The notes under the pieces are model-generated. The model was not told the DNA's origin and did not search any database. It worked only from the letters and a program-made list of their open reading frames with translations. A stretch of DNA of 64,000 nucleotides from Heliocidaris erythrogramma (Eukaryota > Echinodermata > Echinoidea > Camarodonta > Echinometridae): positions 11,179,168-11,243,167 of the forward strand of contig CM046869.1 of NCBI GenBank assembly GCA_025617745.1, in the 5' to 3' direction. A program made the translations under genes and the position numbers. This document shows positions 260 to 62,580 of the stretch, in pieces. Every line of letters begins with the position of its first letter. The first letter of the stretch is position 1.

Positions 260-3073
260 GTGATCCATGACTGCAAGTCGGACACCGCTGCATTGTACCA
301 TGAGTTTGGCGTGGTACTCAAGAATGTGTTTGATACACAGGTAAGTCATGTCCCTTGTGATACCATTCGCCAGGTTTGTTAATTTTTCTTTTTTCCCTCT
401 AATCACGCTCAGCGGTCTAGGAATGTTATCTTTTTCTTTTCTGTATGTATTGGAGTTATTTTCTTTTTATATATTTATTATGTACTATTATGTACTAAGG
501 GCACCCTCACCCCAAGCTTTTGCTTTTAGAGGTGTGTCCTCCAACTGTGTATGTACCACATGAATGTATACTTTGTCATATTTTTGTTTAAAATACAATT
601 ACATTATTTTTCTCATTTACTACTTTGTACACTTATATTGAAAAGTTGGAAATAAATGTCTTTAAATTGAAAATTGATTGAATTATCTAATTCCCAGTTG
701 GGCGTGTGTCAATTTGCTGACACAAAATACTAAATACCATAACGATGTCAATAAAATAAATAACGTGCAAGAAAAGATAAAGAGGTCCTAATTTATAGCA
801 TTAATTGACATTTAAGAAATCGTCACAATATTTTTTTTAGAAAAAAATCAACGCAAAACTATACATGTAGTTTTAGGTCCTACCATTCCAATGGTAGTCA
901 TGATCAAACAATCGGGTTCTTAAATTTATAAAGAAATGATAGACTCCCTTTTCTAATGTTTTACATTGGTATCCAAATCGATAATGTTATATAATTTGTT
1001 ACAGGTTAAACTTGAGTAGTAATATTATGATTTGCTATATTTTCTCTTTCTTTCCATTTTATTTCCATTATGATTGTTACTTTTCTTTATACTAATGCTT
1101 TTTTTGTAAAACAAAATATTCATGTCAATGTCAATGAAGTTTCTCAATGAAATACCAAAATACCATGGCGAGAACTGAAGAGTGGCGGATAAAGACCCAC
1201 CACTTTGAACATTCATAACCTTTTGGTATAATCATTCAACTCTCTAACTTGAACTAGCATGGTTTGAAGTACATATTATTGTTACTTTAAGTTTAAGACA
1301 TATAATGCCCTTGTCGTTGAGATGAAAATGCTACCTGAAAAAGGACATAATTTAATAACCCTGACCTTTGGTTACATGTCGTTTATCCGAAGGTTCATAA
1401 TTCCGAATGTTCAGAAAACGACGACCCCCTTACTATTATTTGATTTGATTTGGATTTTTTTATTTACCATCAACGACATTTAAGTACAATACATATTTAC
1501 ACAATGATATTTACATATAAAGGAAGAAAGCATTGGTTGGTGAAAGGGGCCAGATGATAGCATATGTGCTAGTCGAGCCTGACCCACAACAGAAAAACAA
1601 GTATTTCGCTAAAGTTCAGCATACAATTATTAACAAAAAATAATAACAGTTAACAATGGAAGTAAAAAAAGTACAAAGTAATGTTAAATACATTTCCTGT
1701 ATATACAGAATATTTGCAAGGATGTTTTCATTTATGATTCATACTCAGCAAGTGTGTTGTAATAGAATTCCGAAAGCCACTTCTAGACCTGGGTAATCTC
1801 ATTTTAAGAGGTAATCTATTCAAAAATTCACTGCCCGAGAAAGACAATGAAAATTGACCTTGTGCCCCTCTTTGCTTTTGCCTTGTATAATGTCACAGTA
1901 ATGTACTGAAGTATGATGCAAGTTGTTATATAAATCATATATGAAGTAGAAATTGACAAATCATGCAAATCATATACATTAAGGGTTCGCAAACGTTGAA
2001 ATAGAGGGATCGTATGAGTTATCCATTCACTAAATGTATGTCCTCTTAGTGCTTTCGAAACATGCTAAACGAATAAGAAAATGGATTAGGGATTGATAGA
2101 AAGGCATCTCTATTTGCATCTTCAGATTGTTTTCCCTTGCATCTTCAGATTGCGATGAAAGCCTTGATGGAGCAACTGAACAGGTACGGTTCTTATCTCA
2201 TGGGCTTCAAAGGTCTCTATGAGCTCCTCGGAGAGGGAACCTCTCACAAAGATGATGAATTTGTGAAGAAAATGGTGCGTACGCCGAATTTCTGGAAGAT
2301 GAGACCTTTCTCGGAAGAGATGATCTACTACGCCGCATCTGACGCTTTGTGTTTGGTTCCCAGCGTCTACCTGAAACTCGACGGGTATGTCAATATGTTT
2401 GGACCATATTTTCAGTCACTAATTCTCTTTTGTTTTCTCTCTGAAAATTTGATTAATAGAATGTGTGTGCATGATATTTTGTGGAATACATAAGCTGAGT
2501 ACTTTTTTAAGGCTTCTGTTAGCATCTTCTAATACCATATGCAAGTTTTATTCAGGCTAAACCTAGCAAATGCAATTGCCAGTGGTCTTTGCTTGTGTTT
2601 ATTTATATTTGGCCCATTGTGAGTCTATTGTCTTGTTTTTCACTCCCTCTCACACTTTTGTGTATTTCGAAAAATATGCAGTATTTGTCATTCCTTCTCA
2701 CATGTCCGGCTGTTTTTGTTCTGTTTTAACAAGTTTATGCCACGATTGGAAAATCGCGTGAGGAAAATTTTTAGGCAATTGAAAATTGAGATTTTAAGTT
2801 CCAATAATTAAGCAAAAATCTGGCTAAATCGAACTAATACATGTTCTCAAGTTCTGAATAATGGCCGAGAAAAGTCGTTTAATAAAAAGGCCTCCAAGAT
2901 CGTGACGATCTACTATTATTGTGCAATCAACTAATATGTGAATCATAATTTTCTTGATAACTGAATTGATATCTTGGCATTCACTTCCTTACAGTATGCT
3001 GACACCAATTTGGCGGGATTTTTTCAAGTGGTCATGCAGGAACACCGTGGAAGGCATCCAAAAACTGCGTTAG
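260..3073 (+). CDS. Egalitarian/EXD1-like 3'-5' exonuclease, copy A (3' part, three exons)
   Basis: Three coding exons are visible: 260-340, 2149-2384 and 2995-3073 (stop TAG at 3071-3073). Each is flanked by AG and GT, and phases 0, 2 and stop join without a shift. The first exon reads VIHDCKSDT..., the ExoII block with its Asp. The second carries FWKMRPF...YYAASDALCL, the ExoIII Y-x3-D motif that defines DEDDy nucleases. The last begins MLTPIWRDFFKWSC. The ExoI (DxE) exon must lie left of the window, so the gene is 5' partial. Family members bind RNA: Egalitarian in mRNA transport, EXD1 in the piRNA pathway, where it is reported to be catalytically inactive. The FW-x-x-RP...EM-x-YAA-x-D pattern recalls Egalitarian more than vertebrate EXD1. 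Oddity: the stop replaces a CAG present in copy B, and the following codons still resemble copy B's tail. It may be a functional shortened protein or an early pseudogene. Confidence 0.75.
341..2148. other. Intron of copy A, no gene seen
   Basis: AT-rich intron between the ExoII and ExoIII exons. It is much longer than the equivalent copy B intron (645 bp). The stretch around 1440-1700 follows a T-run and looks like the reverse-oriented 3' end of a retroposed repeat, similar in style to 11520-11680. No coding signal was found. The 2385-2994 intron is likewise plain AT-rich sequence. Confidence 0.5.
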
Positions 3074-14300: not shown

Positions 14301-17300
14301 ATTAATTCAATCCTAAACCTAAACATTAGTTCAGCTTAAGATATCGGACTATTATAAACTAAAGCAGAGATGATGAGATCATTTTCTAGTGTGAAAATGA
14401 TATAAAGTTGAATCATTTGGATATTTTGGGTTTTTAGTACAAACCAAATGGGAAATGGTGTTTTCTTATTCAATTTGTTAATCAGATATATTTCTTTCCT
14501 CTATATTGGTTTGATTGTCCCGTATTTAAGTCCTAATGAAAAAAACAATAGAATACATGAGAAATCCTTAAAAAAATGAAATACATGCAAAATAAAATAG
14601 AATGTAATGACAAATCTTCTGAATGTCTTTTAAACTTTTTAGAAGCATTTTACACAAATGAATACTCTTCAGAATTTTTGAAAAATCTAATTATTAACAA
14701 AAATATGAATTTATCAATACAATTTGCATAAATTATAGTAGATTAATATACACCAATTGAATTATTTGTAACACAGATATATTAGGTCATCAAAAATTAT
14801 CAAATTGTTAACTCAATCTGTGTTTCAAACGATATTTTTACTAATTATTTACATAATATGAATTTTATGAACTATTTCCCATTGACCTTCAGAAGTCATT
14901 CTGTAACGGTCATTCCGTAACTTTGCTTCATTTCATAATTTGCATCATGTATCAAATTTTTTCAAATCAATTTTCAGTAACATGGTGACACATCAAAGTT
15001 AACATACTACAGAATGGCACAGCAATCATGAAAATCGGATGCATATTCGAAATTCACAGAGTTTGAGCAATGTTTATTGTGGTTGAAAAGTCATGTCCTT
15101 TTTGTGTCATTCCGTAACGAAGCAATATAATCGTTAATATTTCATAAATCTGATGAATGGTTGACATGAAACTCACAGTTCTGAAAGTTCCTCGTATTGG
15201 TTTAAGTATTGCAACAATTTGAAAATATTAATTATGGTATTCATATTATTCTTCTTTCAAACTTGAAAATATTTAGTGAATGTCATTCCGTAACGCTTGG
15301 AAATGCCCCCATACAGACACATTAGTTTTCAAAAGACTTTTCCTTCCCAAACTAGTCAACCCCTCCCCTCCGTAAAGCAAACTAGGACCCTCAAAAAGTG
15401 GCGTCTATAGGCCTAGTGATAGATCAATTAAACCGAGATGCCCCCCCCCCCCCCACCTGAGGCCAAGGTCTGGATACGCAACTGTTATCTTTCGTGCTTA
15501 TTGTTATAAGTTAGTTATTGCTCGGTAGATGCAATTCAGGTCCATTAGAATTAAAAGCTAAAAATTTTGCGAGTGCATTTCCATTTGAAATCGCTCAGTA
15601 AATTTGAATTCGAAAAATGCAATGAAAAGAACAACAAAAAGACAACTGAGAATCATTCACAATGAAAAATATACGGATTGGATTCTGATCAAGGATAGTA
15701 AAATATTGAAAACAGACAGTACAACAGAATGATTAAAATAATGATTAAAAAGAAAATTGAATCGCTTGTGAAATAATGAAGAAAAAATAAATGGAAACCA
15801 AATCGGGCAACCAACAATTAGGCCCGCGGTGAATAAGTGAATGATTAAATGGATTTGTGAACCATGCATTGTTCCCGTCAGAATAAATTTTGTTTTCATT
15901 CAATTTCAGGTGATCCATGACTGCAAATGTGACACTTATGCATTGTACCATGAGTTTGGTGTGATACTCAAGAACGTGTTCGATACGTCGGTAAGTTCTG
16001 AGATGTTAACAGTATGGTACAGCACGATACAGCACGATACTACAAAATACAGCACGATAAAGCACGATACAACACGAACTTTGAAGCTGTTCCTCCAGGT
16101 GGAATGGCTTTTCCAAGCTCTCAATGAACTGTAAACAGTTTTGTATTGTTTCTGGTGTATAGGGTGTGAAACCAGAATCAGAGTTTTGACAAACTATTAT
16201 GAAAAACAGTTTTGAAACGCTGCTTCACGGTACCCTGTTTATTGCTCTTTTCTCGAGGCAAATTCGGGCTCTGTGCGTTTTGTGAGTTTTTGAACTGTGT
16301 TTTAAAACCATGTTTCTGCAAAAAAAAAACAATGCTGCGGACACAACCGTGCTTTGAACTAAATGTGTATCAAAACGCTGATTCTAGCCTGAAAAATGGA
16401 GCTGTAAAAGCATCCATATAATATCTCCGCTTTTTCTAGTTTTCCAGGGAACAGTTTACCTAACCCGTACTCGGTATATAGAGCTCAATTTTATTTGCAA
16501 GTGCAAAACACAACAAAGTTTGATCTGGAGCGCTAGCATTTTCCAGAAATCACATGTTTGCCATCTTGTAGAAATACATCGTACAAGGAAATATCTACTT
16601 CCAGATTAATCATCCCCTCATATTTTTTTTTTTAGATCGCGATGACCACTTTAATGGAGCAACTGAACAGGTACCGATCCTACCGAATCGGCTTCAAAGC
16701 TCTCTGTGAGCTCCTTGGAGAGGGCGCCTCTCACAAAGATGATGACTTTGTGTGGAGAATGTTGCATACAGCAAATTTTTGGAAGATCCGACCTTTCAAA
16801 GAAGAGATGATCTACTACGCCGCATCTGATGCATTATGTTTGGTTCCTAGCGTCTACCTGAAACTCAACGGGTATTATGTTTTGACCATAATCTTCACTC
16901 ATTAATTCGGTTTTGATTTCTCTCTCGAAATTTAGAATCATTAAATTATTTGATAATGATATTTGGCCGAATAGATAACACGAATGCTTGCCTCTTTACA
17001 TAAATTATAGGGAAATCCAACCTTGATGGCAAGTTGTGCTGAAAGAAAGAGGGAAAATCGGAGAAGCAGATTGGTGAAAGTTTGAACGAAATAGGACAAG
17101 CAATAAGAAAGTTATTAATTTTGGAAAGTTGTAATCACTATACATATGGGAATTTCAAATCGGCTGAATCGGAAATATCACTGTGATGTAGTTGTGGACA
17201 ACTCCCCATTTGTTCCAACACACAGAATGACTAAAATTTCAGGGTTTTTTTCTCAAAATGTATTACTCAGTTGGATCTTTTTCTTTCATGAGGACCTATA

Positions 17301-21328: not shown

Positions 21329-22376
21329 CTGCACACACTGAGTTGTAGAAATGTTTGACAGTATCATTATAAGTGAAGGAAAGAAGGAATTTTGTGTAAT
21401 TAATTCCCAGAAAAAAATGCCAAAAAGCTGGAAAGATTCTCACATAGAGTCTCTGGATAGATGGTTGTGTGGAGGCGCGTGATTGGTCATTCATGCCAAA
21501 AATCTATTCTCTTAGCCAATCAGGATGCAGGATAGATGAATGGATATAGGGCTTTTTGCAAGAAAAGTGTTTTGGATTTAGGGCCTTTTGAAAGAAAACA
21601 TAATTTTCATCTCATTTTTAAAAAAACTTCCTGAAACTTTTAGAAGTTGAAATATAGCCAGTTTGATGCACATGGTGAATGTCTATTAAGGCATATAAAA
21701 AAGTGCCATATGCTAAAAAAATGGATTTAGGGCCTTTTGCAAGTAAGCTCTTCATGTATATTATATTTGATTATGATTTTGGTAACATTTTAACCAGTTA
21801 CTCCAAATCAAAAAGTCAATTCATTAAAATGGATCATACGACCATATGTGATATCCATATCAGCCTCTTGGGAGAAATAGAAAATGATCCAATGAAAAAC
21901 AAAAAATATATCGGGTTTAATAAAGTGTTAAAACCCTTATTTCAAGAAATCCCCCATACTGAAGTGTATTTTGAGTGGTATTTACACATACTATATCTAT
22001 ATGAAGTTTCAGGGAACCACATTTCAATTTGCAGTTTCTGCTATTTCGTGGTCGCCCAATACCTTATCATTATATTTGTTTATACCTTATTCTGTTACAT
22101 GAAATGGCAATAAATTAATTCAAAGTCAAATGAGACAAAGAATATATTCTGTTCCTATTCAAAAATACTTAGAATAATACACATTTGAGCAGGAAAAAAA
22201 ATCCTTGATTTTTTTTTTTTTTTTTTTTTGTCCTTTTTTTTTTTGTGTGGTTAAATAATCAGCACACCATAAGACATTTTGGGATCAAAACCAGAAAATT
22301 TGTCTTGTTGACAATTCACAGGTTTACCTCCCCCTTAATAGACAGTCAACCTTAACGTTCACACACGGCATGTATC

Positions 22377-22462
22377 GCTGCGATGGCCGAGTGGTTAAGG
22401 CGTTGGACTCGAAATCCAATGGGGTTTCCCCGCGCATGCAGGTTCGAATCCTGCTCGCAGCG
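22377..22462 (+). tRNA. tRNA-Ser(CGA), copy 1 (long variable arm)
   Basis: The acceptor GCTGCGA pairs with TCGCAGC, discriminator G. The D-arm carries GGCCGAGTGGTTAAGGC. The anticodon loop CTCGAAA gives anticodon CGA (Ser). A long variable arm and T-arm GCAGG-TTCGAAT-CCTGC follow. It is 86 nt long because of an extra ATGC in the variable arm relative to copies 2 and 3. A T run follows as terminator. Confidence 0.85.
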
Positions 22463-22936
22463 GATTTTTTTTCACCTTCAAGATTGAGATAAATCCCCTG
22501 TTTGGGTCTTGTCACTCTTATTAGCTGGAAAGAAAACTGGGATCGAAGTTTTGCCATTTTGAGTGGTATTTACACAAATATATCTATATGAAGTTTCAGA
22601 GAACCACATTTCAATTTGCAGTTTCTGCTATTTCGTGGTCCCCCAATACCTTATCATTATATTTGTTTATACCTTATTCTGTTACATGAAATGGCAATAA
22701 ATTATTAATTCAAAGTCAAATAAGACAAAGAATATATTCTGTTCCTATTCAAAAATACTTAGAATAATACACATTTGAGCAGAAAAAAAATCCTTGATGT
22801 TTTGTGTGGTTAAATAATCAGCACACCATAAAGACATTTTGGGATCAAAACCAGAAAATTTGTCTTGTTGACAATTCACAGGTTTACCTCCCCCTTAATA
22901 TACAGTCAACCATGACGTTTACACACGGCATGTTTC

Positions 22937-23018
22937 GCTGCGATGGCCGAGTGGTTAAGGCGTTGGACTCGAAATCCAATGGGGTTTCCCCGCGCAGGTT
23001 CGAATCCTGCTCGCAGCG
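22937..23018 (+). tRNA. tRNA-Ser(CGA), copy 2
   Basis: The same fold as copy 1 with the standard 82 nt length. A boxes, B boxes and all stems are intact, followed by GGA and nine Ts for Pol III termination. Confidence 0.93.
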
Positions 23019-23511
23019 GATTTTTTTTTCACCTTCAAGATTGAGATAAATCCCCTGTTTGGGTCTTGTCGACAGTCTTATTAGCTGGAAAGAAAACTGG
23101 GATCAAAGTCTTGCCATTTTGAGTGGTATTTACACATAATTATATAGGCCTATCTATATGAAGTTTCAGGGAACCACATTTCAATTTGCAGTTTCTGCTA
23201 TTTCGTGGTCGTCCAATACCTTATCATTATTTTGTTTATACCTTATTCTGTTACATGAAATGTCAATAAATTCATTCAAAGTCAAGTGAGACAAAGAATA
23301 TATTCTGTTCCTATTCAAAAATACTTAGAATAATACACATTTGAGCAGGAAAAAAATCGGATTCCTTGATTTTGTTTTTGTGTGGTTAAATAGTCAGGAC
23401 ACCATAAGACCTTTTGGGATTAAAACCAGAAAAATTGTCTTATTGACAATTCAAAGGTTTACCTCCCCTTTAATATACAGTCAACCTCAACGTTCACACA
23501 TGTCGTGTATC

Positions 23512-23593
23512 GCTGCGATGGCCGAGTGGTTAAGGCGTTGGACTCGAAATCCAATGGGGTTTCCCCGCGCAGGTTCAAATCCTGCTCGCAGCG
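23512..23593 (+). tRNA. tRNA-Ser(CGA), copy 3
   Basis: 82 nt, identical core, but the T-loop reads TTCAAAT instead of TTCGAAT. This is a purine-for-purine change at position 57 that should be tolerated. T-run terminator follows. Confidence 0.9.
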
Positions 23594-24073
23594 GATTTTT
23601 TTTTTTACCTTCAACAATTAGTTGGTAATTAACTTGTGTTTTCGTGATTCTAATAAACTAAATGAGATTTTTTTTCTATTAGAAAATGCAATTTAGTTTG
23701 CTTGCTTATTTATTTTAATGAAAGATTCCCCATTCATTTGAACACACTTTTCATTCAATTTCAGCGTTTTGTACTTCAGTTGCATCCAGGAACGTTCAAA
23801 TGTTCCTTTTCAAAGGCAACTCTTCTTATTTCTTACGTGCAATTGGTATAAAATTACGTTCTTTATGTGCAGATTTTTTTTTTTTTTAATTTGGTGGCTT
23901 GCCATCATGGATAAAATAGACTAAATTATTGTATTACCCACATAAGCATTGTTTGCTATATTTGCCCCTTCGTTCAGTATAATTACAATGTTTAGGTAAA
24001 TAATTATTCTGTTTTTTTTTTTTTTTTTTGGCTCATCAATACTATCATCTTTGTTTGATGCTTATTACATTGT

Positions 24074-37200: not shown

Positions 37201-40200
37201 CAACAATAGAGGTGTATTGAAGTCTTCTTTGATACCTAGACTGTCCATTAAGTGCAATTTCATTAATATTTTTCAATGCAACTCATTTAATTTTGTGCAT
37301 AAACTGAAATTTGAAGAAAATCATTTTTTCTTTGTTCCCTACAACATATGATAATTTCAGCTTTATCTTACGAAGAAAAGTACCAGTAAATTCATAGTTG
37401 GTTGTTATATCTTTATTTTAAAAAAATTATCCTCTTTTAGATGATGCCACATTTGTGATGATAAAGCCTGGGATGATTGAACTAAAACAATTATAAATCA
37501 GCAATGCAAAAATGATTTTTTTTTTTTTTCTTTTTTTTTTTGGTCTGGACTCGAGCACATACTTGAATTGGCATACGGTGTGATCATCTGGAAGGACATT
37601 GGGGCTATTTTTTGCAAAAGCAAGATATAGGCGCCGATTTCTGACGGCGGTGGCGGCGACGGCAGTAAACGTGTCATTTGAGGATCATACAATAAAGAAG
37701 GAATATGATTAGCCTGTTCATGGATGTGTTGTGGACGTTCCTATTCTACCACATCGTTGTACTTCATACAGCAACAGCTCAAGCTTCAACAAAAGTCTGA
37801 AGAAGCTTGCAACACAGCAAGCAAAAGCTTACCACAACAAGTACTTTTTTTACTGATTGTGAAGAAAAGAAGTAATCAGATGATCCTCATTAGTGAAAAA
37901 AATGCTATTTACACTACCCCCCAAATATATATATATATATATAGAAAGAAAACTGCTAAAAGCGTTTGTAATGCATTGTGGCCAATTTTATATTTACACT
38001 CAAATTTTCGGCGCTCCCTGGCGTCTTCTTCAGGAGAACAATAAATGATAAGGTATCATACAAATAATTGAAATAGTTATAGTTCTAGCGCGCGCATCCT
38101 CAGTCAGATATAGGTTGCTTAGAAACAGTCTCTCTGGCGATCTGACTGGGGATGCGCGCGCTTTACAAAAAAATGATGGATATAATTATGTAGATGAGAA
38201 AAGAGTAATGTGCGCGCTTCATTATTACATAATCTACGTAATTTACATAATAATACACAAAATCCCAAGTGGTATTAGCGGCAAAGATTCAAAATAATAG
38301 TATTGAAACAAAGAAGGAGAATTGATACCAAATCATTAATAAAGAACATGTGACTGAAAAGATACAAAAAAAACTTAGCGAAAATATGTAAATCCATTCA
38401 ATTTGTTTGAGCCGATACGTGAAACCTTAACATATATATATATATAGCGAGAGAGGTGTGGATGTGTGTATCGTTCGGTTGAACCATGTTAAATTTAGAT
38501 ATGTGAACAGATAATGATGGAACGGAATGAAGCAGGTCACTCGGTTAATTTACAAGCTTTCGGCTCCTGGCCTCCTTCAAGTTTATTTGCTAAATCAAAC
38601 AGAATGAAACAAATAATAATAATAATAATAAGCAACTTAACAAAACTAAAGACAACAGAACAGAATTGTCATAAAGTTGGCAACATAAATCAAAAGGAGT
38701 ATTAAAGTGATATTGAAAAGATGTTACTCGCCAAAGCAAAACTAAAAACAACAGAACAGAATTATAAAAATGGCAACATAAATCAACATAAATGAAATTG
38801 AAGAGATGTTACTCGGCAGGAGTAAGTGAAATAACGAAAATGGAACTTAATAGAAACAAAAGTGAGCAAAGTAAGCAATTACCTGACTTTTAAGGTCGAA
38901 GCAAATATATATATGTTGTCTCGTGTGTAAAGTGTAGATGTTCAGTGTAATAATAGTTACATGTAATACGGATGTCACGTAGAGGGCGTTTACTGCACAA
39001 GGTAGTAAATGGGTGCGTCCGACCGGAGCAAGGTAAAAGAAGGGGGGGGGGGGGGCTTAGTGAAGTTCCAGTGTTGGAGGGATGATTAGGCAAGACAATT
39101 CATTTTGTCTTTTTACTCTCTATATGCGTGCAATAGTCAAGTCAACTACGTGCCTGTCGTAACATACGTGTTTGTAAGGAGATATGGATAAAAGTATGAC
39201 AAAGAGGTGTAAAAAGAGTTAGGTTTATAATAAATGCATGTGTACACGTGCATTATTAGTGCACGAATACTGGTGCACAGATACTCACATACATTTGCAC
39301 CTACACCTGTGATATACGTATGGAACATGTACACGTATACATACTTGTATATTTGTATGTGAAATTATAAATATCCTACAATATACTACTACTACTACTC
39401 TACGCAGGGTCCTGCAAACCCAGCTAACAAAGAAACCCCAAGACAGACTTAACAAAGGTCTTAATGTCAAGAGCGTGTGGATCAGTGCCCCACTTCACAC
39501 CCCCGCCAACACTGGCCCTCTATCTTGATACTATCGAAGCCTCTTTAGAACCCCTCATTAATACTCGCCACAAAGACAACCTTACCAAAGCAGAAAGAGA
39601 AGCACTGACAAACCTGCGCAGCAATAATGATGTGATAATAAAACCGGCAGACAAAGGTTCAGCAGTAGTGATTCAAAATAGAGACAACTATTTAGCAGAA
39701 GGATTAAGACAACTAAATACACACACTTACGAAGTGAAACCAAGTGACCCCAACAGTGACCAAATTAAACTGATAAAATCAGCTATTCTTGAAACAGATT
39801 TTCAAGCATATATCAAAAAGAAACTAATCCTCCCCAAACCTTCTTGTCCTCAAATGTATTTTCTACCCAAGTTCCACAAAGTAGGAAGTCCAGGTCGCCC
39901 CATAGTGTCTGGCTGTAGCTGCCCTACCGTTCAAGTTTCCAAACTTCTTGATACTATGCTACGCCCTCTTGTGGCACAGAGTAGATCATACATCCAAGAT
40001 ACCACCGATTTCCTCCGTCACGTAACGAGAATCAATGACGAGGGTCCCCTACCAGACAACACCATTCTAGTTTCCGCTGATGTTTCATCGTTACACACCA
40101 ACATACCTCACAACGAAGGCCTAATCGCTTGCTCCAAGGCTCTCGATGCCCGCATCACACGAAATCCTCCCACACATCAGTTAGTTCGTCTACTGGAACT

Positions 40201-42455
40201 TGTCCTAAAACTAAACAGTTTTCAGTTTAATGACAACTTCTACCTCCAAATAGAAGGAACGGCTATGGGGACTCCTGTGGCTCCCTCTTATGCGAACATT
40301 TTCATGACCGACCTAGAAAACATGCATCCCCCCTAAAACCACTACGCCAGTCTTGGCGCAGATATATAGATGTGAACTTTCTATGGGCTGGAAATCAAGA
40401 ATTCCTACAAGATTTCATTAACTATGCAAATTCCTTTCACCCTACGATAAAATTTACTTTCGAGTCATCCCAACATTAGGTCCTGTTTTTAGACACTCTA
40501 CTTTATATTAAAGACCTCAGCCTGACCGAATTTTGAAATATACACTTTATTCATCCACGGGGAGCTATATACTTTCTGAACAAATTGAAACCAACTTCAT
40601 GAGATTCCGTTTCCTGTGGAATGAGTAACAGCGTCCTGAATGTTGAGCCCCGGTGGTTTTTCTGACGAGGGCCCCGTCTCTGAGGAACGCTACTTTGCGG
40701 GGGGTGAAAATTTGATGACGACATATCGTGTAGACGCACTCGGAGCTGTATACATGACATGTCGTCACACGTCTAGCGACCCCCTGCAGTTTCCTCTCTT
40801 GTTACGCAATAGGGAGGGGGCGGACCAAAAAAAATTATCTTTTTTATTTTTTATTTTTTATGGATAAACGGAGACGAAAATTTATGAATACCCAGGGTAA
40901 TTATATTCTTTGTTTACTAAGCTTTACGTCAATATATGGTTGTTTTGGGTCAGGCTGAGGTCTTTAAGGATCATGTACTCCACACCTCCCTCCACACTAA
41001 ACCCACAGATAGCCATGCATACCTTATCCCACAATCATGTCACCCACCCCACACCTTTTCTGGAATCCCATACAGCCAAACACTTGATCCTTGAGAGACT
41101 TACTCGTAACAGCTTGGATCCCTCACATACCAACCCCTGACCGCCCCATCACATAGGCCCACTAAATGCGACGCGCGTAAATGTTGCATTTGTCCATTCA
41201 TCAACGAATCAGATCACTTTGTAAGTACAGTCACCGGACAAAAATTTCCCATCAACCAATATATTCACTGCAAATCCAATTACGTAGTATACCTCATCCC
41301 ATGCAAAAGCTGCAAAAAACAATACGTGGGTAAAACTACCACCACACTCTACACACGAATGAACAACACCAGGTCGGACATCAAAAAATACAAGACCAGT
41401 AGACGCAAAGATATTCCCATCGCCGCTCACTTCAGCAGAGACAACCACACTATTGAAGACATGCAAGTCACAGGTATAGAACTAATCCGTAATAAAGATG
41501 CATCAGTCATACTCAAAAGGGAATCCTTCTGGATTATCAAACTTAAAACCCTCACCCCCAACGGAATCAATGTAGATGAATAAACCGAATACATATCTCT
41601 GCACAAAATCAGGACAACCTACTCTTGATTTTCATGTTTCTGTCCTGTTTTGGCTATTGTAGCCTCGCCCGCCTCTCTTTCCCTCGTTTGCTCAACTAGA
41701 TATCTCAACTCCACATCTCTCCTCTCTCTCTCTCTCTCTTTCTCACTTCCTCACTTCCTCACTTACAATCATCATAGTACTTTTCCAGAGGTAGGCACAT
41801 ATTAAAATGTATGATCAGAGACATGATTTTACGTACATTATGTATGTGGGTATAATCATACACAGTACACTCTAGTAATTGTTTATTATGTATAATCATG
41901 TGAAAATATTTGTGTGCGTCAATATATGAATATATGTATATATATATATATATTTATGTATGATATGTTACCATATAATTTCATATACAAATGTACAAAC
42001 GTGTGTACGTGTACAAATATCCGTACGTATATCGCAGATCGTCAATATATATTTATGTATGTATATTTGCTTCGACCTTAAAAGTCAGGTAATTGTTTAC
42101 TTTGCTCACTTTTGTTTCTATTGAGTTCCATTTTCGTTATTTCACTTACTCCTGCCGAGTAACATCTCTTCAATTTCACTTATGTTGATTTATGTTGCCA
42201 TTTTTATGATAATTCTGTTCTGTTGTTTTTAGTTTTGCTCTTGCGAGTAACATCTTTTCAATATCACTTACTCCTTTTGATTTATGTTGCCAACTTTATG
42301 ACAATTCTGTTCTGTTTTTAGTTTTGTTAAGTTGCTTATTATTATTATTTGTTTCATTCTGTTTGATTTAGCAAATAAACTTGAAGAAGGCCAGGAGCCG
42401 AGAGCTTGTAAATTAACCGAGTGACCTGCTTCATTCCATTCCATCATTATCTGTT

Positions 42456-52100: not shown

Positions 52101-55100
52101 CAGATGGAGGTCACAGAGGGTGCAGCTGGTCCAGCAGTCGGACTGGAGATTGCAGGTGCAGTGGACAAGGTTGCAGAAGTGCCTAAATTACCCATTCATA
52201 GTCCAGGAAGAATCATGAAAGCTAGGAAGTCATTCCCGTCAAAAAAAGCTAGAGGAATGAGTGCTGACGATGATCCTGATGATGATGATGAAGACAGCAT
52301 AGAGGAGTATGTTGAACTCAATTCGGAAGATTTTGATCAAGCAGAGAGTGAAGATGCGTTTGAAATGGGTCCTCAGGGTTTAGACACCCCAGATAGGAAT
52401 GCCAATAGTGACACCACAGTGGATGAAAGAAGTACCCTGAGTGAACCAGAAGGCAGTGTGGGTTCCGAGAGTAGTTCTTCAGTGCCTTCAACAAACTCGA
52501 GTAAATCTGCCAGAAAAATAGTGCCTGGTGAGAAGTTGGATGGTAAAAAATCTGCCAATGCCAGAGCTAAAATTGTGAAGTCTCAATCAGAAAGAGTGGT
52601 CCAACTACATGTAGGTGGAGAGGAAGCCATGGACATTGGTGCCTCAAACCGAAGAATCCCAATGGACACATCAGCAGTAGATATTGACCCACTCTCTGCA
52701 GGAAGCTCCCAAAGCCAAGCAAAAGCCTCCATCAAAACCAGTGGCTCCACAGTCAAAATCCTTGGACACATTCCTGAGCAGTCTGATCAAGAACAGCTCC
52801 AAAACCAATCTGCTAGTGAGCCGGTTGTAGGGACTGTGGCAGAGTCACAGCTTCCATTATCTGGGACATCCACTCCTGTAGCAGACTTTCCAGTGGGGAA
52901 TGCTGGGTCGATGATCCCAGATAGGGCAGCATTTGCTAAAGCGATGTCAGCAAAGAGGAGTACAAGACTACGCAAGCCGACCCACTTTGGACAACACTCA
53001 AGGAGGAAGAGGCAAAAGAATGTTTCAGATTCTGGTTAGTCATTGTCTTTAATATATTAGTTTGCTAGTGATTTATTGTATTTATATTAAAGGATATTTG
53101 TGAGACAAGAATTAAAGTTTGACATTTATACAAAAGGCAGTATGATGATTAAGGGTAGTCCAAAATCTATAAAATGTTTTGGGCCAAAAATAAAACAACT
53201 AAAGAAACAACAGTTTATATTCAGTTATTTCTCATAATATAGTTCGGTAGACAACTTTGTCAAGTTTCACCCTGTATTTTCATGTCTTAACAAGTTATTG
53301 TATCATTAAAAAATGTTAATGGCCAACATAGCGATATAGAAGATTTTGAAGAGTGAGTCATAGTTGCTATGAAGGGCATGCTACAATGGATGTGGAAATG
53401 GTGCATCACAGATACAGTTCATTTTAACCCTTTCAGGACAGGAATTATTGAAGAGCTAAATTGATCACATTTTGCTCTTCAAATTGGCAAAAATAATTTT
53501 TCTTTCAATGCTACATGATTATAATAAAATGTAATGTCTTTGAAAGCAACATACATGTACATGGTTGGGAATTTTGATGAAAAGTTGAACAAGTTGCCAA
53601 TTTTGATAAAAAAATGATTTTGAACCTCTCAATATGTTACCAATTTAAGGATTTTAAAGCTTATTCTTGTTTCTAAAATTCCTGGCATTAAACGCAATAT
53701 GGTCATGCAACAAAAATGGACATCGTTTGTGCAGAAATTTTTTGCTCTTTCTACACATGCATTTGGTATATTTTTGAGAGCTTTGAATCAAAAGTTATTG
53801 AGCCAAACCACAAAATGTGGTCAATTGTCTCGAAAGGGTTCAACAAAGTTTTTGGTGAATGGGTCAAGTATTATGTGTGGAGTCTGTGGATCTATAGACA
53901 AAGTCCTGTAGAAATGTGTTGTGTGATGCATGGTTGCCATGTCTGGTTTGGCTAGCTTTTAAAAGGAAATTCCACCCTTATTACTCATGTTGGTTTTAAA
54001 AGAAGCAGAAAAATTAAAAGTAAAAGATCAGTGAAGGTTTGAGGAAAATATAAGAAATAAGAAAGTTATGATTTTTTTTTTAAAGTTATCAATCAAACAC
54101 AAATTGGGAACTCCGTGACGTGCAGTGTATCTTGCCAGCTCCTCTCCCATTTGCCCTGTACCCCTAAAATCATTAATTTCCGTTTTCTCTTAAAATATGT
54201 GACTAGGCACCACAAAACCACCAAAAAGTCGCGCTGTGTGATTTTCAGTAAGAGCTCAATCAATGTGTTTTTGGTTGGCATTGTCAAATTTTAGTTTTGG
54301 GTATTTCCTGAAAGAGTATACTTTTTTATAATTTGGAGGCACCAAACAATCTAAAAGTCTATTTTTGACAGTTTTTTTTTATTAGACTTTGGGTGTGTCT
54401 TCTCTGGATTTTGTGGTATTATGTTTCTTTTTTACGACCCTGAATACTTGTCTCATTTTGATCTCCCATAACTTTTAAACGGAGTAAGTTCTTGCATTGA
54501 TACTTTTGCACTGTGGTATGAGGATATGATTAATTAGTATGCCAAGTTTTAGAACAATCTGATAATCCCTTCATAGAAATTTTCATTGAGTTCTAATCCT
54601 CCTTTTGTCACCTTAGCACAACACCTTGCAAGTCAGAGTGCTTCAATAGAGTGCTTCAACAGACTGCAAACTTTAAACCCTTATTTCAAAGAAGTAACAT
54701 TCTGAGGGACTGTGCATTCTTCTCTTTGTACAGTGAGGAACATCCAGTGCTAATGAGTTATACATGTATATCATTTTAAAGCTAAGAATCTCCTCTTTCA
54801 GAATCAGACCTTAACTAAAAATTCATATCTGGCGACTTTTTGGTGGTTTTGTGGTGCCTGGTCACATATATGCAATCATATGCACCATACATGTAGATAT
54901 GATGATCGCTCATATGTTACTACACGTAACCTGTAATTAACAAATTTATTCCTTCATCAGAAAATAAAATGAAAATTTGTGAAATTTTCTGTTCAGAGCA
55001 AATGGGAGAGGAGCTTGCAAGAAACTTTACGGAGTTGCCAATTTGTGTTAAGTGATTACAACTTCAAAAATTCATAACTTTCTTATTTCTTATCGGATTT

Positions 55101-58100
55101 TGTTCAAACTTTCACTAATCTGTTTCTCTCATATTTGTTCATTAATTCAAATCAACTTAATACCAGGGTGCGGACTTCCCTTTAAAGGGAAATTAACCTC
55201 AGCGTATGAATTAGCTTATTTTGAATGGTGTAGTATATGCCTCTTATTTGATACATGCAATTTCATGTAAAAACACAGGATATAGATATAAATCACTATT
55301 TTCCAGCCAAGTTATCGTCTGCTAGCAATAATAAGGGGGCTGCCATTACTTTATGTGTACACGAACATATTTTTCATCCCAAGTAAAATTTCCTTCATCG
55401 TTAACTTGTAATTGATTTTTAGAGGACAAATATATATTAGATAAAGTCACATATTCTGAAATGTAAGTTTAGTTTTATATATTTTTTAAAAGGTCTTAAT
55501 TTGTTCATAAAAAATATACTTCATAAAAAATATACGTCAAGGACGGAGAATTGACGTCAAGGACGGAGACAATCGTAACAATACCAAAACAAAGCGAGGA
55601 ATCTGCTTTACAGGATGGCTATTAGAACTCATGGGTCGTCAATTATCTAGGCCCATGGCCAATAACAATCGTAATACAATCAGAACAAAGCGACGTATCT
55701 GTTGTAAAGGTAGGCTATTATCAATGCATATGGTACCTAATGATCCGTGTCATGCACAAAATGGCAGCCTCCATGGAAAGACGTAGCAGACAATAGGTGC
55801 ATCTAGAATATCACGTGGGGTTACTTGCCCTTTAATGCTTTAGAATATCCTCAAGATATACTCTTCTTCTTGTAGATTCAACGGACCATCAGTCAGAGAG
55901 TAGTATTGAGGCAGCTAGAAGTAAGAAGGTGCGTCGTTCCAATGGTATGGAAACCGGGGCAGAACACAGCTATGCCAGAAGAGGTGATTATATACAAGCC
56001 ATCTGTATTAGAAAATGTTCAGTTTTTGAAAGGTAAAATTCCAACTCTGTGTATTGATAGCATTCCAAATACAGGAATTTTCTCAATTTTCGTTTCATGT
56101 AGATATTGAAATGAAAAGAACCATTTCATACAGAAGAGTACCAGAATTTAAATAATAAGGTCACAGACCAGTTGCAGTTTCAGGAGCAAACTGTGTGATG
56201 ACCAATGTATGAGTGATGCTTCATACAGTTACATAATAGTACATTTGATATGCAGTGGCACACTCTACTGACAGGGTAAAATACTTAGCCTGTTTACAAG
56301 CCTGTTATGTAAACTAAATTTTCTTAAGCTGTACTGCTATGTGGAGAAGCCTTCATCCTGCAACCTACAGAGAGTTCGGAAGGGGGGAGGGGGATTTTTT
56401 TTTGCTCACAAAATTTACAAAATTGACAATTTAATACAAACAAGACGTTTTATTGACTGCATTGGAAAGCATACACCTGGAATTCTGGATATCGCATATA
56501 TCCGATATCCAGTGATATCAGCTATCGATAGCAAAGATTTCTTTCCAAGTACCCCGGTGTGTTGGGATGGGTACTTCCGGTACTGGTACTGTACTGTTAT
56601 GGTACTGTACTGTTATGGTACTGTTTGGCATGGCGTTCATAACTTGTTTATATCGGCTTTATGCGTGCAATACGGATACAAATTGCAGTGTGTGAGGTCA
56701 TATTTCACATTTTGGGATATTGTTAACGATTTAATAATAACTTTACGTCGATTTGACTTTATTTCGGTGGATTTTAAAGAGTTTGAAATCACCGCAAAAG
56801 CAGCAATCCCCCATTTCTATCGAGATATGGATTGGCCGTACGCCGCCTGCATTGGGGTAGCAAAAGTCCGACTTCCCGTAGCGATAGCGAGCGTTGCGTT
56901 TCATGCAGGATTCTGGGTCATGGACAATAAAGATGCATCAACATTGGATATAAATTTATATTAAAATTCCATTTAAATGAGTTACATCACGATTCCATAT
57001 TCAGTTTCTACAAAATGTAATGATTGGATTTTTGAAATGTTTTCGATCTGAAACTCCTAAAATTATGAGAAATAAGGAAATTTGGAGCACCCTCTAGTGA
57101 TTTGACTGTGTTTTTGTCAGAGCAGTGCATTATGTATGTGGCAGTGGTACAGAGCATTTCTTTGGATACAAATAGCTTGAAATTTCCTTTTTTCTCAAAT
57201 TTAAGGCAATATATCACATGAAACATATACAAAATCGAATGATGGCACTTTAAAGAAACTGAACTGAATATGGAGGAATCATGATGTAATTCATTTAAAT
57301 AGAATTTTAGTATAAATTTATATCCAATGTTGATGCATCTTTATTGTCCATGACTCAGAATCCCGCATGAAACGCAACACTCGCTACGGGAAGTCAGACT
57401 TCTGCTACCCCAATGCAGGTGGCGTACAGCTAATCCATATCTCGATAGAAATGGGGGATTGCTGCTTTTGCTGTAATTTCAAACTCTTCAAAATCCACCG
57501 AAATAAAGTCAAATCGACGTAACATTGTTATTAAATCGTTAACAATATCCTAAAACATGAAATATCACCTCACACACTGCGATTTGTATTGTGAAATTTC
57601 CGACGAATTTCCGGATGACGGTCAAAATAAAGAGGAAAGTTGGTGAAACTACCTCGACTTTGGGGGCTAATAAAAAAAAAACTATCGAATAAGACTTGTA
57701 AAACCAAATGAACAATTTGAAGAGTGGATGATAAACAATAAAAATAAATGTATGTTGATACCTGGAAAACCATTGAAAAATCACCATGGCAACAAATAAT
57801 AAACCATGATTTTATGAATCGATTATATGACAAACAAGGTTATTTTGAGGCAAATTTTGCTGCATTTTACTGACATAAAATATGTACACATGTGTAGCGT
57901 CTGCGTTTCTAACACAGAACTCCTAAGCTGTTACCGGAAGTGAGCGACCCAGCAAAAATACCACGGATGTTGATATCGATAGCTGATATCGCTGCATATC
58001 GGCTATATGCGATAAGGAGAATTGGGGGGAGGGGATAGTTGATAATTAACTTATTTGTTACATGAATGATGTTCCAAAGGTCACAACTTATTTGGTTTAT

Positions 58101-61100
58101 CAGAACATGTTATCGGGGTCATTTGGAAGATTATTTCATAATTATACCCCCGCCAAATGAAGTTTGAAGGGGGTATATAGGAATCAGTCGACGGTTGGGC
58201 GGTCGCTCCGTTGCAAATCTTGCGGATCGAACTACTTCCTCAGTTTTTGACCGAAAGTCATGAAATTTGGTACACACATTGGTCTTGGTGGGAGGATGTG
58301 CAAGACATATTTTTCGGATGAGTCGGAATCTGCGTTGCCATGGTAACGGCATATTTATGGCAGAAAATCAAGCAAACACCTTGCGGATCAAACTACTTCC
58401 TCATTTTTTGACCGAAAGTCATGAAATTTGGTACACACATTGGTCTTGGTGGGAAGATGTGCAAGACATATTTTTTGGATGAGTCGGAATCTGCGTTGCC
58501 ATGGTAACGGCATATTTATGGCAGAAAATCAAGGAAACACCTTGCGGATCGAACTACTTCCTCATTTTTTGACCGAAAGTCATGAAATTTGGTACACACA
58601 TTGGTCTTGATGGGGAGATGTGCAAGACATATTTTTCGGATGAGTCGGAATCTGTGTTGCCATGGTAACGGCATATTTATGGCAGAAAATCAAGGAAACA
58701 CCTTGCGGATCGAACTACTTCCTCAGTTTTTGACCGAAAGTCATGAAATTTGCTACACACATTGGTCTTGGTGGGAAGATGTGCAAGACATATTTTTCGG
58801 ATGAGTCGGAATCTGCGTTGCCATGGTAACGGCATATTTATGACAGAAAATCAAGGAAACACCTTGCGGATCGAACTACTTGCTCAGATTTCGACCAAAA
58901 GTCATGAAATTTGGTACACACATTGGTCTTGGTGGGAAGATGTGCAAGACATATTTTTTGGATGAGTCGGAATCTGCGTTGCCATGGTAACGGCATATTT
59001 ATGGCAGAAAATCAAGGAAACACCTTGCGGATCGAACTACTTCCTCATTTTTTGACCGAAAGTCATGAAATTTGGTACACACATTGGTCTTGATGGGAAG
59101 ATGTGCAAGACATATTTTTCGGATGAGTCGGAATCTGCGTTGCCATGGTAACGGCATATTTATGGCAGAAAATCAAGGAAACACCTTGCGGATCGAACTA
59201 CTTCCTCATTTTTTGACCGAAAGTCATGAAATTTGGTACACACATTGGTCTCGATGGGAAGATGTGCAAGACATATTTTTCGGATGAGTCGGAATCTGCG
59301 TTGCCATGGTAACGGCATATTTATGGCAGAAAATCAAGGAAACACCTTGCAGATCGAACTACTTCCTCAGTTTTTGACCGAAAGTCATGAAATTTGCTAC
59401 ACACATTGGTCTTGGTGGGAAGATGTGCAAGACATATTTTTCGGATGAGTCGGAATCTGCGTTGCCATGGTAACGGCATATTTATGACAGAAAATCAAGG
59501 AAACACCTTGCGGATCGAACTACTTGCTCAGTTTTCGACCAAAAGTCATGAAATTTGGTACACACATTGGTCTTGGTGGGAAGATGTGCAAGACATATTT
59601 TTTGGATGAGTCGGAATCTGCGTTGCCATGGTAACGGCATATTTATGACAGAAAATCAAGGAAACACCTTGCGGATCGAACTACTTCCTCATTTTTTGAC
59701 CGAAAGTCATGAAATTTGGTACACACATTGGTCTTGATGGGAAGATGTGCAAGACATATTTTTCGGATGAGTCGGAATCTGCGTTGCCATGGTAACGGCA
59801 TATTTATGGCAGAAAATCAAGGAAACACCTTGCGGATCGAACTACTTGCTCAGTTTTCGACCAAAAGTCAAGAAAGGCTGTTGTCACGGGGCGGGGGTAT
59901 TAATCATCATCTTTAGTGATATTTCTAGTTTAAATTGCACATACGATGTTGTGCAATTGACTTCAAAATGCACAATGAAATATGTACAGCTTGTGTCAGG
60001 TGAAGTATATGATGCAAATTTGAGGATTAAAAAAGCTAATGTGGTTGTTCAAAACCTCATCTATTTCTCTTTTAGATAAGCGAGGTCCTGTTGCTCTCAC
60101 TCTCCCTGATGCCGCAGGAGACAACCCAAAACGTGGGGTGAGTAACTCCTTCTGGATGTGTCCAAGTATATAAGCGATGTCGTAAGGTAACTTGGCAAAG
60201 AACGCGGGAAAGACGCATATCTAAAATCATATTTTTATTCTATAGAGGCAAAACCAAATTATTAGGATGAAGTATTAGTGTTTAACTCTCTGAACATTTT
60301 TAAGCAAAATTATATTATATTCTGTTATTCAGAAAAGTCTGATTCTGAGTTTAGATACACAGACAAAACTAGCAATTTCGCTCTTTGCTTTGGCTAAGCT
60401 CCCTAAGGGTTTAGTAGTATTAGGAAATCTTTCTTATTGAAATTATTACAAAAATAATCACCCGACTTTAGCTGTAGCAGCCATTATCATTGCACGCTTT
60501 TTTCTTTTTTCTTTTTTATTAAATAGTTCCCTTAACGGAAAATCCAGGTACAGAGACAATGATAGATGAAATGAAATGTCAAATCACATGATATGAAAAT
60601 ACTCTTATTGCAATCAAATTTTTTTACTTGTTCCGAAGATGGATTTCTCATTGTGCTATGAAACTTTGTGATATTCACATATTTTTTAAATTGTTGTTGC
60701 TTTTTAGTTGGAACCTCCTCTATGTTGCTGCAAGATGGAACAGGAGAGACCTGCCACTGTTGTAGCCACAACCTGTGAGGCCCTAGAAGTTGTCAAAGGC
60801 AATGTAAGTCCAAAGTATACACAGTGATTGGATAGATCGTCACCCCAAATGCTCTTTCTAAATGGAAAATTCTTTGTATGGGGAAAAAATATCAAAAGAA
60901 GCTGAGAAGTCATCAAAGGCAATGTTAATTTTATCAGTTCTATGCAAAGTATCCTCGGTAGATCTTAATCTATATGTTCTGCCATGTTGGAAAATCTGTT
61001 GAAGAAGAAGAAGAAAAAATTGAATTGTTAATCAGATACGATATAGAGAGATCAATTTAGAGAAAGTCCACCCTTGTCCGCTTCAAAATTCCATTACATA

Positions 61101-62273: not shown

Positions 62274-62389
62274 GCACACTAACACATGGTTCTATTTGCT
62301 ACTCCGAGTTTCATGCTTTTAATAGCAATCTTCAGGCAAAATGTACTTTAATTCCAATGAACAATCCTTTTTTACCCTCATCTCGCGTA

Positions 62390-62580
62390 TAGCGCGCAGT
62401 GCAAGTTTCCATGGTAAGCGCGTAATACAAGTCTCCATGGTAAGCGCGCAATTCCGCGTATAGCGCGCAGTGCAAGTTTCCATGGTAAGCGCGCAATACA
62501 AGTCTCCATTGGTAAGCGCGCAATTCAAGTCTCCATGACAAGCGCGCAATGCCTTGTCAAATTCCATAGCAAGCACGTAA
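62390..62580. repeat. GCGCGC minisatellite, ~28 bp units
   Basis: About seven imperfect units of the form AAGTCTCCATGGTAAGCGCG with AATACA or AATTC. Two units carry the variant GTATAGCGCGCAGTGC. It is strikingly CpG-rich for this window. Confidence 0.85.

What the first reader, a model, noticed from the sequence alone, without database searches (positions are those of the whole stretch)
58145..59899. A transposon that carries a ten-site RFX X-box array inside the EHMT gene
A Harbinger-like element (10 bp inverted ends, TTA duplication) has its interior expanded into ten near-identical 161 bp units. Each holds the palindrome GTTGCCATGGTAAC, a full match to the RFX X-box consensus, invariant in all ten copies. 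X-boxes drive ciliary genes in animals. A homotypic array with fixed nucleosome-scale spacing could act as an enhancer or RFX sink, or seed satellite DNA from a transposon. Units and ends are seen directly; any binding is inference.
Basis: partly seen in the sequence, partly recalled or inferred. Interest (0 to 1): 0.7.

Follow-up and report, generated by a model that had tools for sequence, protein, structure and literature searches.

The report
Rolling-circle transposon carrying RFX-like motif array
The repeat in this intron is one of many copies of a known type of jumping element that spreads by rolling-circle copying and carries tandem 161-base repeats; each repeat holds a perfect look-alike of an animal gene-control site (the RFX X-box), but the site is no better preserved than its surroundings, so a control function is unproven.

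Summary
The array is real: ten 161-bp units (58219-59828) plus 42 bp of an eleventh, each full unit with GTTGCCATGGTAAC. The classification is wrong. Other genome copies share sequence 29 bp past the supposed right inverted end and its TTA, ending in a weak hairpin and CTAG|TT. Left ends share TTATACCCCCGCC, a complementary inner repeat and a (GGTC/GGGC)n microsatellite. This is the anatomy of a HINE (non-autonomous Helentron, rolling-circle), not a Harbinger MITE; both TTAs belong to the element. The 14-mer occurs 7065 times in the 1.06-Gb genome (reversed control 0). In a C1 sample 80 of 83 sites lie in repeats of two related families, A and B, both with HINE ends. In 95 family-A units chosen without regard to the X-box, it is not unusually conserved (14-bp window rank 45 of 148, P=0.40; 50 of 95 exact). 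The 10-of-10 invariance here has P about 0.22. RFX binding is untested; the EHMT label was not confirmed. Verdict: ordinary kind of element with an interesting load of perfect X-boxes.

The parts
58142..59928 (+). Whole element: non-autonomous Helentron (HINE), about 1.79 kb, family A, ten-unit copy; first few bases of the left end uncertain; T-rich borders
   Evidence: Boundaries from 30 distinct left ends and 39 distinct right ends in other copies; right-flank search of the own genome
58144..58154 (+). 5' subterminal inverted repeat ATACCCCCGCC (11 bp)
   Evidence: Sequence; conserved in other copies
58143..58177 (+). Left stem: TATACCCCC...GGGGGTATA (subTIR plus nested complementary IR)
   Evidence: Fold of 58140-58180: -10.2 kcal/mol, z -5.6, 0 of 200 shuffles as good; conserved in other copies
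58190..58213 (+). Degenerate tetranucleotide microsatellite (GTCG)6; (GGTC/GGGC)n in other copies
   Evidence: 18 of 24 positions fit, 4 of 5000 shuffles as good; runs of varying length, 21 distinct sequences among 26 matches
58219..59828 (+). Ten tandem 161-bp units; 16 of 161 columns vary
58541..59828 (+). Four-unit (644 bp) higher-order duplication: units 3-6 and 7-10 (3, 1, 2 and 0 differences at lag 4)
   Evidence: P=0.004 under random unit order
58334..59796 (+). Ten X-box 14-mers GTTGCCATGGTAAC at 58334, 58495, 58656, 58817, 58978, 59139, 59300, 59461, 59622, 59783
59829..59870 (+). Truncated eleventh unit, 42 bp, like unit 9
59871..59928 (+). Right flank module (RF) of the HINE
59890..59900 (-). 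3' subterminal inverted repeat (GGCGGGGGTAT on the + strand), 11 bp
59906..59920 (+). 3' terminal hairpin ATCAT-CTTTA-GTGAT
   Evidence: Predicted fold but not better than shuffles (z about -0.2); one copy (L013) carries ATGAT, which completes the pairing
59925..59930 (+). 3' terminus CTAG followed by TT
   Evidence: TT follows CTAG in the 35 of 39 distinct right ends in which a CTAG was found
53035..60075 (+). Host intron (phase 1); the element ends about 147 bp before the next exon at 60076
   Evidence: Donor, acceptor and reading frame by inspection; inference

Best explanation
The feature is a HINE, a non-autonomous Helentron (rolling-circle transposon): left module with subterminal repeat, nested complementary repeat and GGTC/GGGC microsatellite; a satellite-like array of 161-bp units; right module with the inverted subterminal repeat, a small hairpin and the end CTAG|TT. 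SHOWN: the anatomy, many copies elsewhere, differing unit numbers among copies, a four-unit duplication inside this array, and Helitron-type replicase domains in the genome. INFERRED: a replicase supplied in trans recognises the two end modules, copies one strand by rolling circle from the left end, stops at the hairpin/CTAG and inserts it in T-rich DNA without duplicating the target; units multiply by unequal exchange or slipped replication. The X-box belongs to the ancestral unit and has hitch-hiked; it may bind RFX, but nothing within family A indicates selection to keep it.
For: Own-genome search with the right flank: 40 matches scored of 329 candidates, 39 of them other copies, each aligned from query base 1 to at least base 66, i.e. 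to 59931 or beyond. Sequences diverge after CTAGTT(T). Left ends share TTATACCCCCGCC, the nested IR and the microsatellite. 30 elements with both ends in fetched loci hold about 1-8 units. Published HINE features: subTIR, nearby complementary IR, microsatellite, central tandem repeats, 3' palindrome, T-rich insertion, no TSD (PMC4067079, PMC7492417, passages). Oyster Helitron-linked satellites include 164-166-bp units (PMC8268682, passages). 103 matches to Helitron_like_N, many in long open frames (two partial frames scanned). X-box not specially conserved in family A.
Against: The 3' hairpin folds no better than shuffles in this copy. The subTIR-to-IR gap is 14 bp: inside the 3-22 bp given for DINE-1 but outside the 1-12 bp of oyster HINEs. 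A CTAG end recalls canonical Helitrons (CTRR) and proto-Helentron. No autonomous partner with these ends was identified. No empty site was examined. The first bases of the left end are not resolved. The window copy's microsatellite is degenerate.
Confidence: 0.95

Rival explanations
1. Harbinger-like MITE: 10-bp terminal inverted repeats, TTA target-site duplication, internal tandem expansion. Harbinger elements with internal tandem repeats do exist (Medicago MtPH-A6-4, PMC2213677, passages).
For: 10-bp inverted repeat with TTA on both sides.
Against: 39 other copies match for at least 32 bp beyond the supposed right end, 29 bp of it element sequence to CTAG; TTA precedes TACCCC in 26 of 30 left ends; a nested IR and GGTC/GGGC microsatellite lie at the left end; Harbinger TIRs are given as 14-25 bp.
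Confidence: 0.02
2. HINE whose X-box is functional and kept by selection: RFX proteins bind the arrays, making them enhancers or sinks, or helping the element in ciliated or germ-line cells.
For: 7065 exact 14-mers in 1.06 Gb, reversed control 0. Families A and B, about 68% identical elsewhere on ungapped columns, share the 15-mer CGTTGCCATGGTAAC as their longest word; longest identical run 22 ungapped columns (across a 2-base gap), 195 of 20000 column shuffles as long. Family B: X-box 98.3% identity against 94.5% mean after dropping one X-box unit per array.
Against: Family A: X-box window rank 45 of 148, P=0.40; exact-word retention rank 85 of 148; 28 of 95 units have GTTGCCATGGAAAC; distinct substitutions hit tolerated positions about as often as expected. 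Family B corrected: mean rank 11 of 143; one draw rank 21, P=0.12. At the A/B identity seen, 0.6 identical 14-column windows are expected anyway, and B was found through the X-box, so the comparison is ascertained. A third HINE-like element in L048 shows no X-box in the stretch read (by eye).
Confidence: 0.1
3. Stand-alone satellite DNA rather than a transposon copy.
For: Exact 161-bp periodicity, homogenised units, higher-order repeat. Some sampled arrays showed no recognisable end by the patterns used.
Against: Both HINE end modules bracket this array; 30 elements with both ends were found in the fetched loci.
Confidence: 0.03

Closest known systems
HINE / Helentron-associated interspersed elements, incl. 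DINE-1 (PMC4067079, passages seen)
   Same: Subterminal inverted repeats, nested IR, microsatellite, central tandem repeats, short 3' palindrome, T-rich insertion without TSD
   Different: subTIR sequence, 161-bp unit and the CTAG end; the paper gives 3' CTAG for proto-Helentron-Pi of Phytophthora, which inserts between A and T
Cg_HINE elements and CgiSat/Cg170 satellites of Pacific oyster (PMC7492417, PMC8268682, passages seen)
   Same: Satellite-like arrays carried between left and right HINE modules; several satellites have 164-166-bp monomers
   Different: No sequence comparison was possible (their sequences are not in the text seen); no X-box is mentioned in the passages seen
pearl family / tandem-repeat-containing MITEs of bivalves (seen only through passages of PMC5139131)
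   Same: Modular non-coding elements with a few satellite-like units; a palindrome in the unit of one of them
   Different: There the palindrome lies near the repeat junction; here the 14-mer is about 32 bp or more from both array breakpoints of the unit
PIF/Harbinger MITEs with internal repeats (PMC2213677, passages seen)
   Same: Inverted repeats near the ends, TTA beside them, tandem core
   Different: Here the element continues past the supposed terminus; no TSD
RFX X-box (GTNRCCN0-3RGYAAC; PMC3414849, PMC2375033, passages seen)
   Same: Sequence-perfect match in every full unit of this copy
   Different: In an intronic transposon array, not a ciliary-gene promoter; no binding data

Membership tests
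HINE (non-autonomous Helentron) | Subterminal inverted repeats of at least 11 bp | tested here: met
   11 bp perfect, 58144-58154 / 59890-59900
HINE (non-autonomous Helentron) | IR complementary to the 5' subTIR a few bases inside | tested here: met
   TATACCCCC/GGGGGTATA, 14 bp after the subTIR; z -5.6; conserved in copies
HINE (non-autonomous Helentron) | Microsatellite in the left module | tested here: met
   Degenerate in the window; (GGTC/GGGC)n of varying length, 21 distinct sequences among 26 matches in other copies
HINE (non-autonomous Helentron) | Short palindrome near the 3' end | tested here: inconclusive
   5-bp stem at 59906-59920 with one G-T pair, not better than shuffles; completed in L013; family B shows a 7-bp stem (by eye)
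HINE (non-autonomous Helentron) | T-rich insertion, T on both borders, no TSD | tested here: met
   CTAG followed by TT in the 35 of 39 right ends where a CTAG was found; T at 58142 in 29 of 30 and at 58143 in 28 of 30 left ends. Empty sites not examined
HINE (non-autonomous Helentron) | Autonomous Rep/helicase(-endonuclease) partner with the same ends | tested here: inconclusive
   103 Helitron_like_N matches in the genome; none linked to these ends; no endonuclease domain in the two partial frames scanned
PIF/Harbinger MITE | Terminal inverted repeats at the actual ends | tested here: not met
   Element extends to 59928, 29 bp past the repeat
PIF/Harbinger MITE | 3-bp TTA/TAA target-site duplication | tested here: not met
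   Both TTAs are element sequence; no empty site examined
RFX X-box | Match to GTNRCCN(0-3)RGYAAC | tested here: met
   10 of 10 full units in the window; 50 of 95 family-A units elsewhere
RFX X-box | Constraint above that of the surrounding unit | tested here: not met
   Family A rank 45 of 148, P=0.40; family B after correction rank about 11 of 143, one draw P=0.12
RFX X-box | Occupancy by RFX | not testable with these tools
   No ChIP or accessibility data

The most novel reading that the evidence does not exclude
Two related HINE families with different end modules have seeded most of this genome's thousands of copies of one perfect 14-bp RFX X-box, in short arrays at nucleosome-like spacing; the X-box block is the longest stretch that the two diverged units share because RFX binding benefits the elements (for example in ciliated or germ-line cells), and the arrays act as a dispersed RFX platform or sink.
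Probability: 0.1. Interest if true: 0.75.

Novelty: new member of a known kind. Interest (0 to 1): 0.33.

Why it matters
It corrects the class of a repeat family that is present in many copies (rolling-circle, not cut-and-paste), which matters for annotation and for how its satellite-like arrays arise. It also shows that perfect X-boxes, usually read as ciliary-gene signals, can be supplied in thousands by transposons, so motif scans in such genomes need repeat masking, and RFX occupancy of these arrays is a clear test.

Tried and rejected
Rejected: (1) Harbinger MITE with TTA duplication. (2) A stronger hairpin at 59933-59958 as the 3' palindrome: it lies beyond the shared sequence, in this copy's own flank. 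(3) 10-of-10 invariance as evidence of constraint: hypergeometric P 0.22; block inside an invariant run of at least 26, P 0.12. (4) The palindrome as array breakpoint: breakpoints are at unit columns 1 and 42, the 14-mer at 116-129.

Led nowhere: three pattern scans of viral contigs and two of genome contigs found nothing; a literature word search for the end sequences listed 17 papers, unrelated by title; a search for Helitron with RFX listed 4 papers, none about this by title and start of abstract; Pfam on the large upstream reading frame gave nothing, so EHMT could not be confirmed. Not tested: empty sites (never searched). Asked but unanswered, machine busy: genome count of GTTGCCATGGCAAC, copy number by the left end, position of Pre-SET domains.

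Rows dropped before counts: of 29 right-flank-selected loci one duplicate (L018) was dropped, leaving 28 loci and 128 hits, of which 33 partial units were dropped, leaving 95; L029 and L030, whose flanks look like copies of one duplicated region, were both kept. In one search, of 70 family-B hits 25 partial ones were dropped (45 left, from 16 of 18 loci). Of 49 regions asked for in the C1 sample, 40 were delivered (83 of the 100 listed sites); the nine others, from 7.87 Mb on, were not. The ends were collected with patterns that force GGGGGTATTAAT(C/T)AT on the right and TACCCC(C/T)GCCAAAC on the left.

Full report
What is there. The window copy has ten 161-bp units at 58219-59828 and 42 bp of an eleventh. 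GTTGCCATGGTAAC sits at the same place in all ten full units. It is a 12-of-14 palindrome and fits the RFX1 consensus GTNRCCN(0-3)RGYAAC quoted in PMC3414849 (passages seen). Outside the array this consensus has no match in the window (0 seen, 0.5 expected); the loosest published consensus tested has 40 matches there against 42 expected.

Is the invariance meaningful? Sixteen of 161 columns vary. A 14-bp block free of variable columns has P about 0.22, and such a block inside an invariant run of 26 or more has P about 0.12. Units 3-6 and 7-10 differ by 3, 1, 2 and 0 bases (lag 4; P=0.004 under random unit order). So the array grew partly by duplication of four-unit blocks, which by itself makes columns look invariant.

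What carries it. The whole genome (1,064,227,859 bp, 26 contigs, host not named) answered four searches out of many attempts. A search with the right flank 59866-60000 gave 40 scored matches of 329 candidates; one is the window itself, and the 39 others each run from the first query base to at least base 66, i.e. to 59931 or further. The supposed terminal repeat ends at 59899. Aligned copies share GGCGGGGGTATTAATCATCATCTT(T/C)AGTGATATTTCTAGTT and then diverge. The collecting patterns force the bases up to TTA and TTAAT(C/T)AT; the rest is not forced, and needed no pattern. The right 'TTA' is therefore inside the element.

The left end tells the same story. In 30 distinct left ends TTA stands before TACCCC in 26, and similarity stops a few bases further left. 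Inside come a complementary inner repeat (stem z -5.6 in the window copy) and a (GGTC/GGGC)n microsatellite of varying length (21 distinct sequences among 26 matches), of which the window keeps a degenerate (GTCG)6 (18 of 24 positions, 4 of 5000 shuffles as good; five- and seven-unit versions 5 and 31 of 5000). These are listed features of HINEs and DINE-1, the non-autonomous Helentrons (PMC4067079 and PMC7492417, passages seen). The weakest feature is the 3' hairpin at 59906-59920: no better than shuffles, though copy L013 has the base that completes it. Thirty elements with both ends in the fetched stretches hold about one to eight units, median length 647 bp; copies longer than the loci are missed, so this is biased to short ones. 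The genome has 103 matches to the Helitron_like_N domain, many in long open frames, two partial ones of which I scanned; none was linked to these ends.

How widespread is the X-box? The exact 14-mer occurs 3414 + 3651 = 7065 times; read backwards, 0 times. A 14-mer from another part of the unit, CATGAAATTTGGTA, occurs 2480 + 2663 = 5143 times, backwards 11. On contig C1, 40 delivered regions hold 83 exact sites; by short diagnostic words 35 lie in family-A-like repeats (19 loci, including a few more divergent ones), 45 in family-B-like repeats (18 loci) and 3 are isolated (3 loci). Family B has a 153-160-bp unit and its own HINE ends (TATCCCCCGAAC...GTTCGGGGATAC at the left in 6 readable copies; CTAG followed by TT in 9 of 9 readable right ends). 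Some A/B loci lack one or both recognisable ends. The A and B units are homologous outside the 14-mer (global score 30 against -30.6 +/- 9.4, 0 of 1000 shuffles as high), about 68% identical on ungapped columns (69-76% with other gap costs); the longest common word is CGTTGCCATGGTAAC.

Is the X-box under constraint? To avoid selecting on it, I used units from copies found by their right flank: 95 full units from 28 loci. Mean identity to consensus is 0.949, X-box 0.962; its 14-bp window ranks 45 of 148 and random sets of 14 non-CpG columns do as well in 40% of draws. Only 50 of 95 units keep the exact word (rank 85 of 148 for exact retention); 28 carry GTTGCCATGGAAAC. With a looser Drosophila consensus 84 of 95 fit, but the ten distinct substitutions fall on tolerated positions about as often as expected (5 of 10 against 0.36 for that consensus; 1 of 10 against 0.29 for the RFX1 one). 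In family B, whose arrays were found through the X-box, it ranks 2 of 143; after dropping one X-box unit per array it averages rank 11 of 143, and one draw gave rank 21 and P 0.12. The A/B shared run is unusual in column shuffles (195 of 20000), but at the observed identity 0.6 identical 14-column windows are expected anyway, and the comparison is ascertained on the X-box. So: no evidence of constraint within A, at most a hint between families.

Mechanism. Best reading: a rolling-circle element moved in trans, inserting in T-rich DNA, whose inner array changes length by exchange or slippage; the X-box is an inherited part of the unit. RFX binding is plausible from sequence but unshown. The element sits on the gene's strand in a 7,041-bp phase-1 intron (53035-60075), about 147 bp before the next exon, by my reading of splice sites; an effect on the gene is possible and untested. 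The name EHMT was not confirmed.

Compared with what is known. Oyster satellites carried by Helitron/Helentron ends, some with 164-166-bp monomers (PMC8268682, PMC7492417, passages seen), bivalve pearl elements (seen through passages of PMC5139131), and models of satellites born from transposons (PMC12628747, passages seen) cover this kind of thing. In the held library I found no paper joining such elements with RFX: Helitron with RFX lists 4 papers, none relevant by title and start of abstract; wider word sets listed 9 of 10 and 12 of 66 papers, none relevant by title. Hence: new member of a known kind, moderate interest for the X-box load.

Noticed in passing
window 56481-58023: A separate inverted-repeat element (arms 56676-56884/57381-57589, 56885-56996/57275-57386, 56481-56534/57970-58023; 87-94% complementary) lies about 120 bp left of the HINE.
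   Followed up: no
window 22376-23594: Three tRNA-Ser(CGA) genes about 570 bp apart on the same strand.
   Followed up: no
window 39428-41583: Reverse-transcriptase-like (39428-40336, below the Pfam cut-off) and GIY-YIG (41110-41583, above the cut-off) frames, consistent with a Penelope-like element (the name is my inference).
   Followed up: no
window 62384-62550: 26/71-bp tandem repeat that twice contains GTTTCCATGGTAAG, two mismatches from the X-box word.
   Followed up: no
L048 (G000:C1:2356500-2360500): A third HINE-like end (GTCTCGCC...GGCGAGAC, GTCC microsatellite) with other units that show no X-box in the stretch read (by eye).
   Followed up: partly
L045, L051, L078: Isolated exact X-box words outside A/B arrays, 3 of 40 sampled loci; possible host sites or other repeats.
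   Followed up: no
window 2077-2493 and 16636-16905: Two similar reading frames (..MEQLNRY..LGEG.SHKDD..YYAASDALCLVPSVYLKL..) suggest a gene or exon duplication.
   Followed up: no
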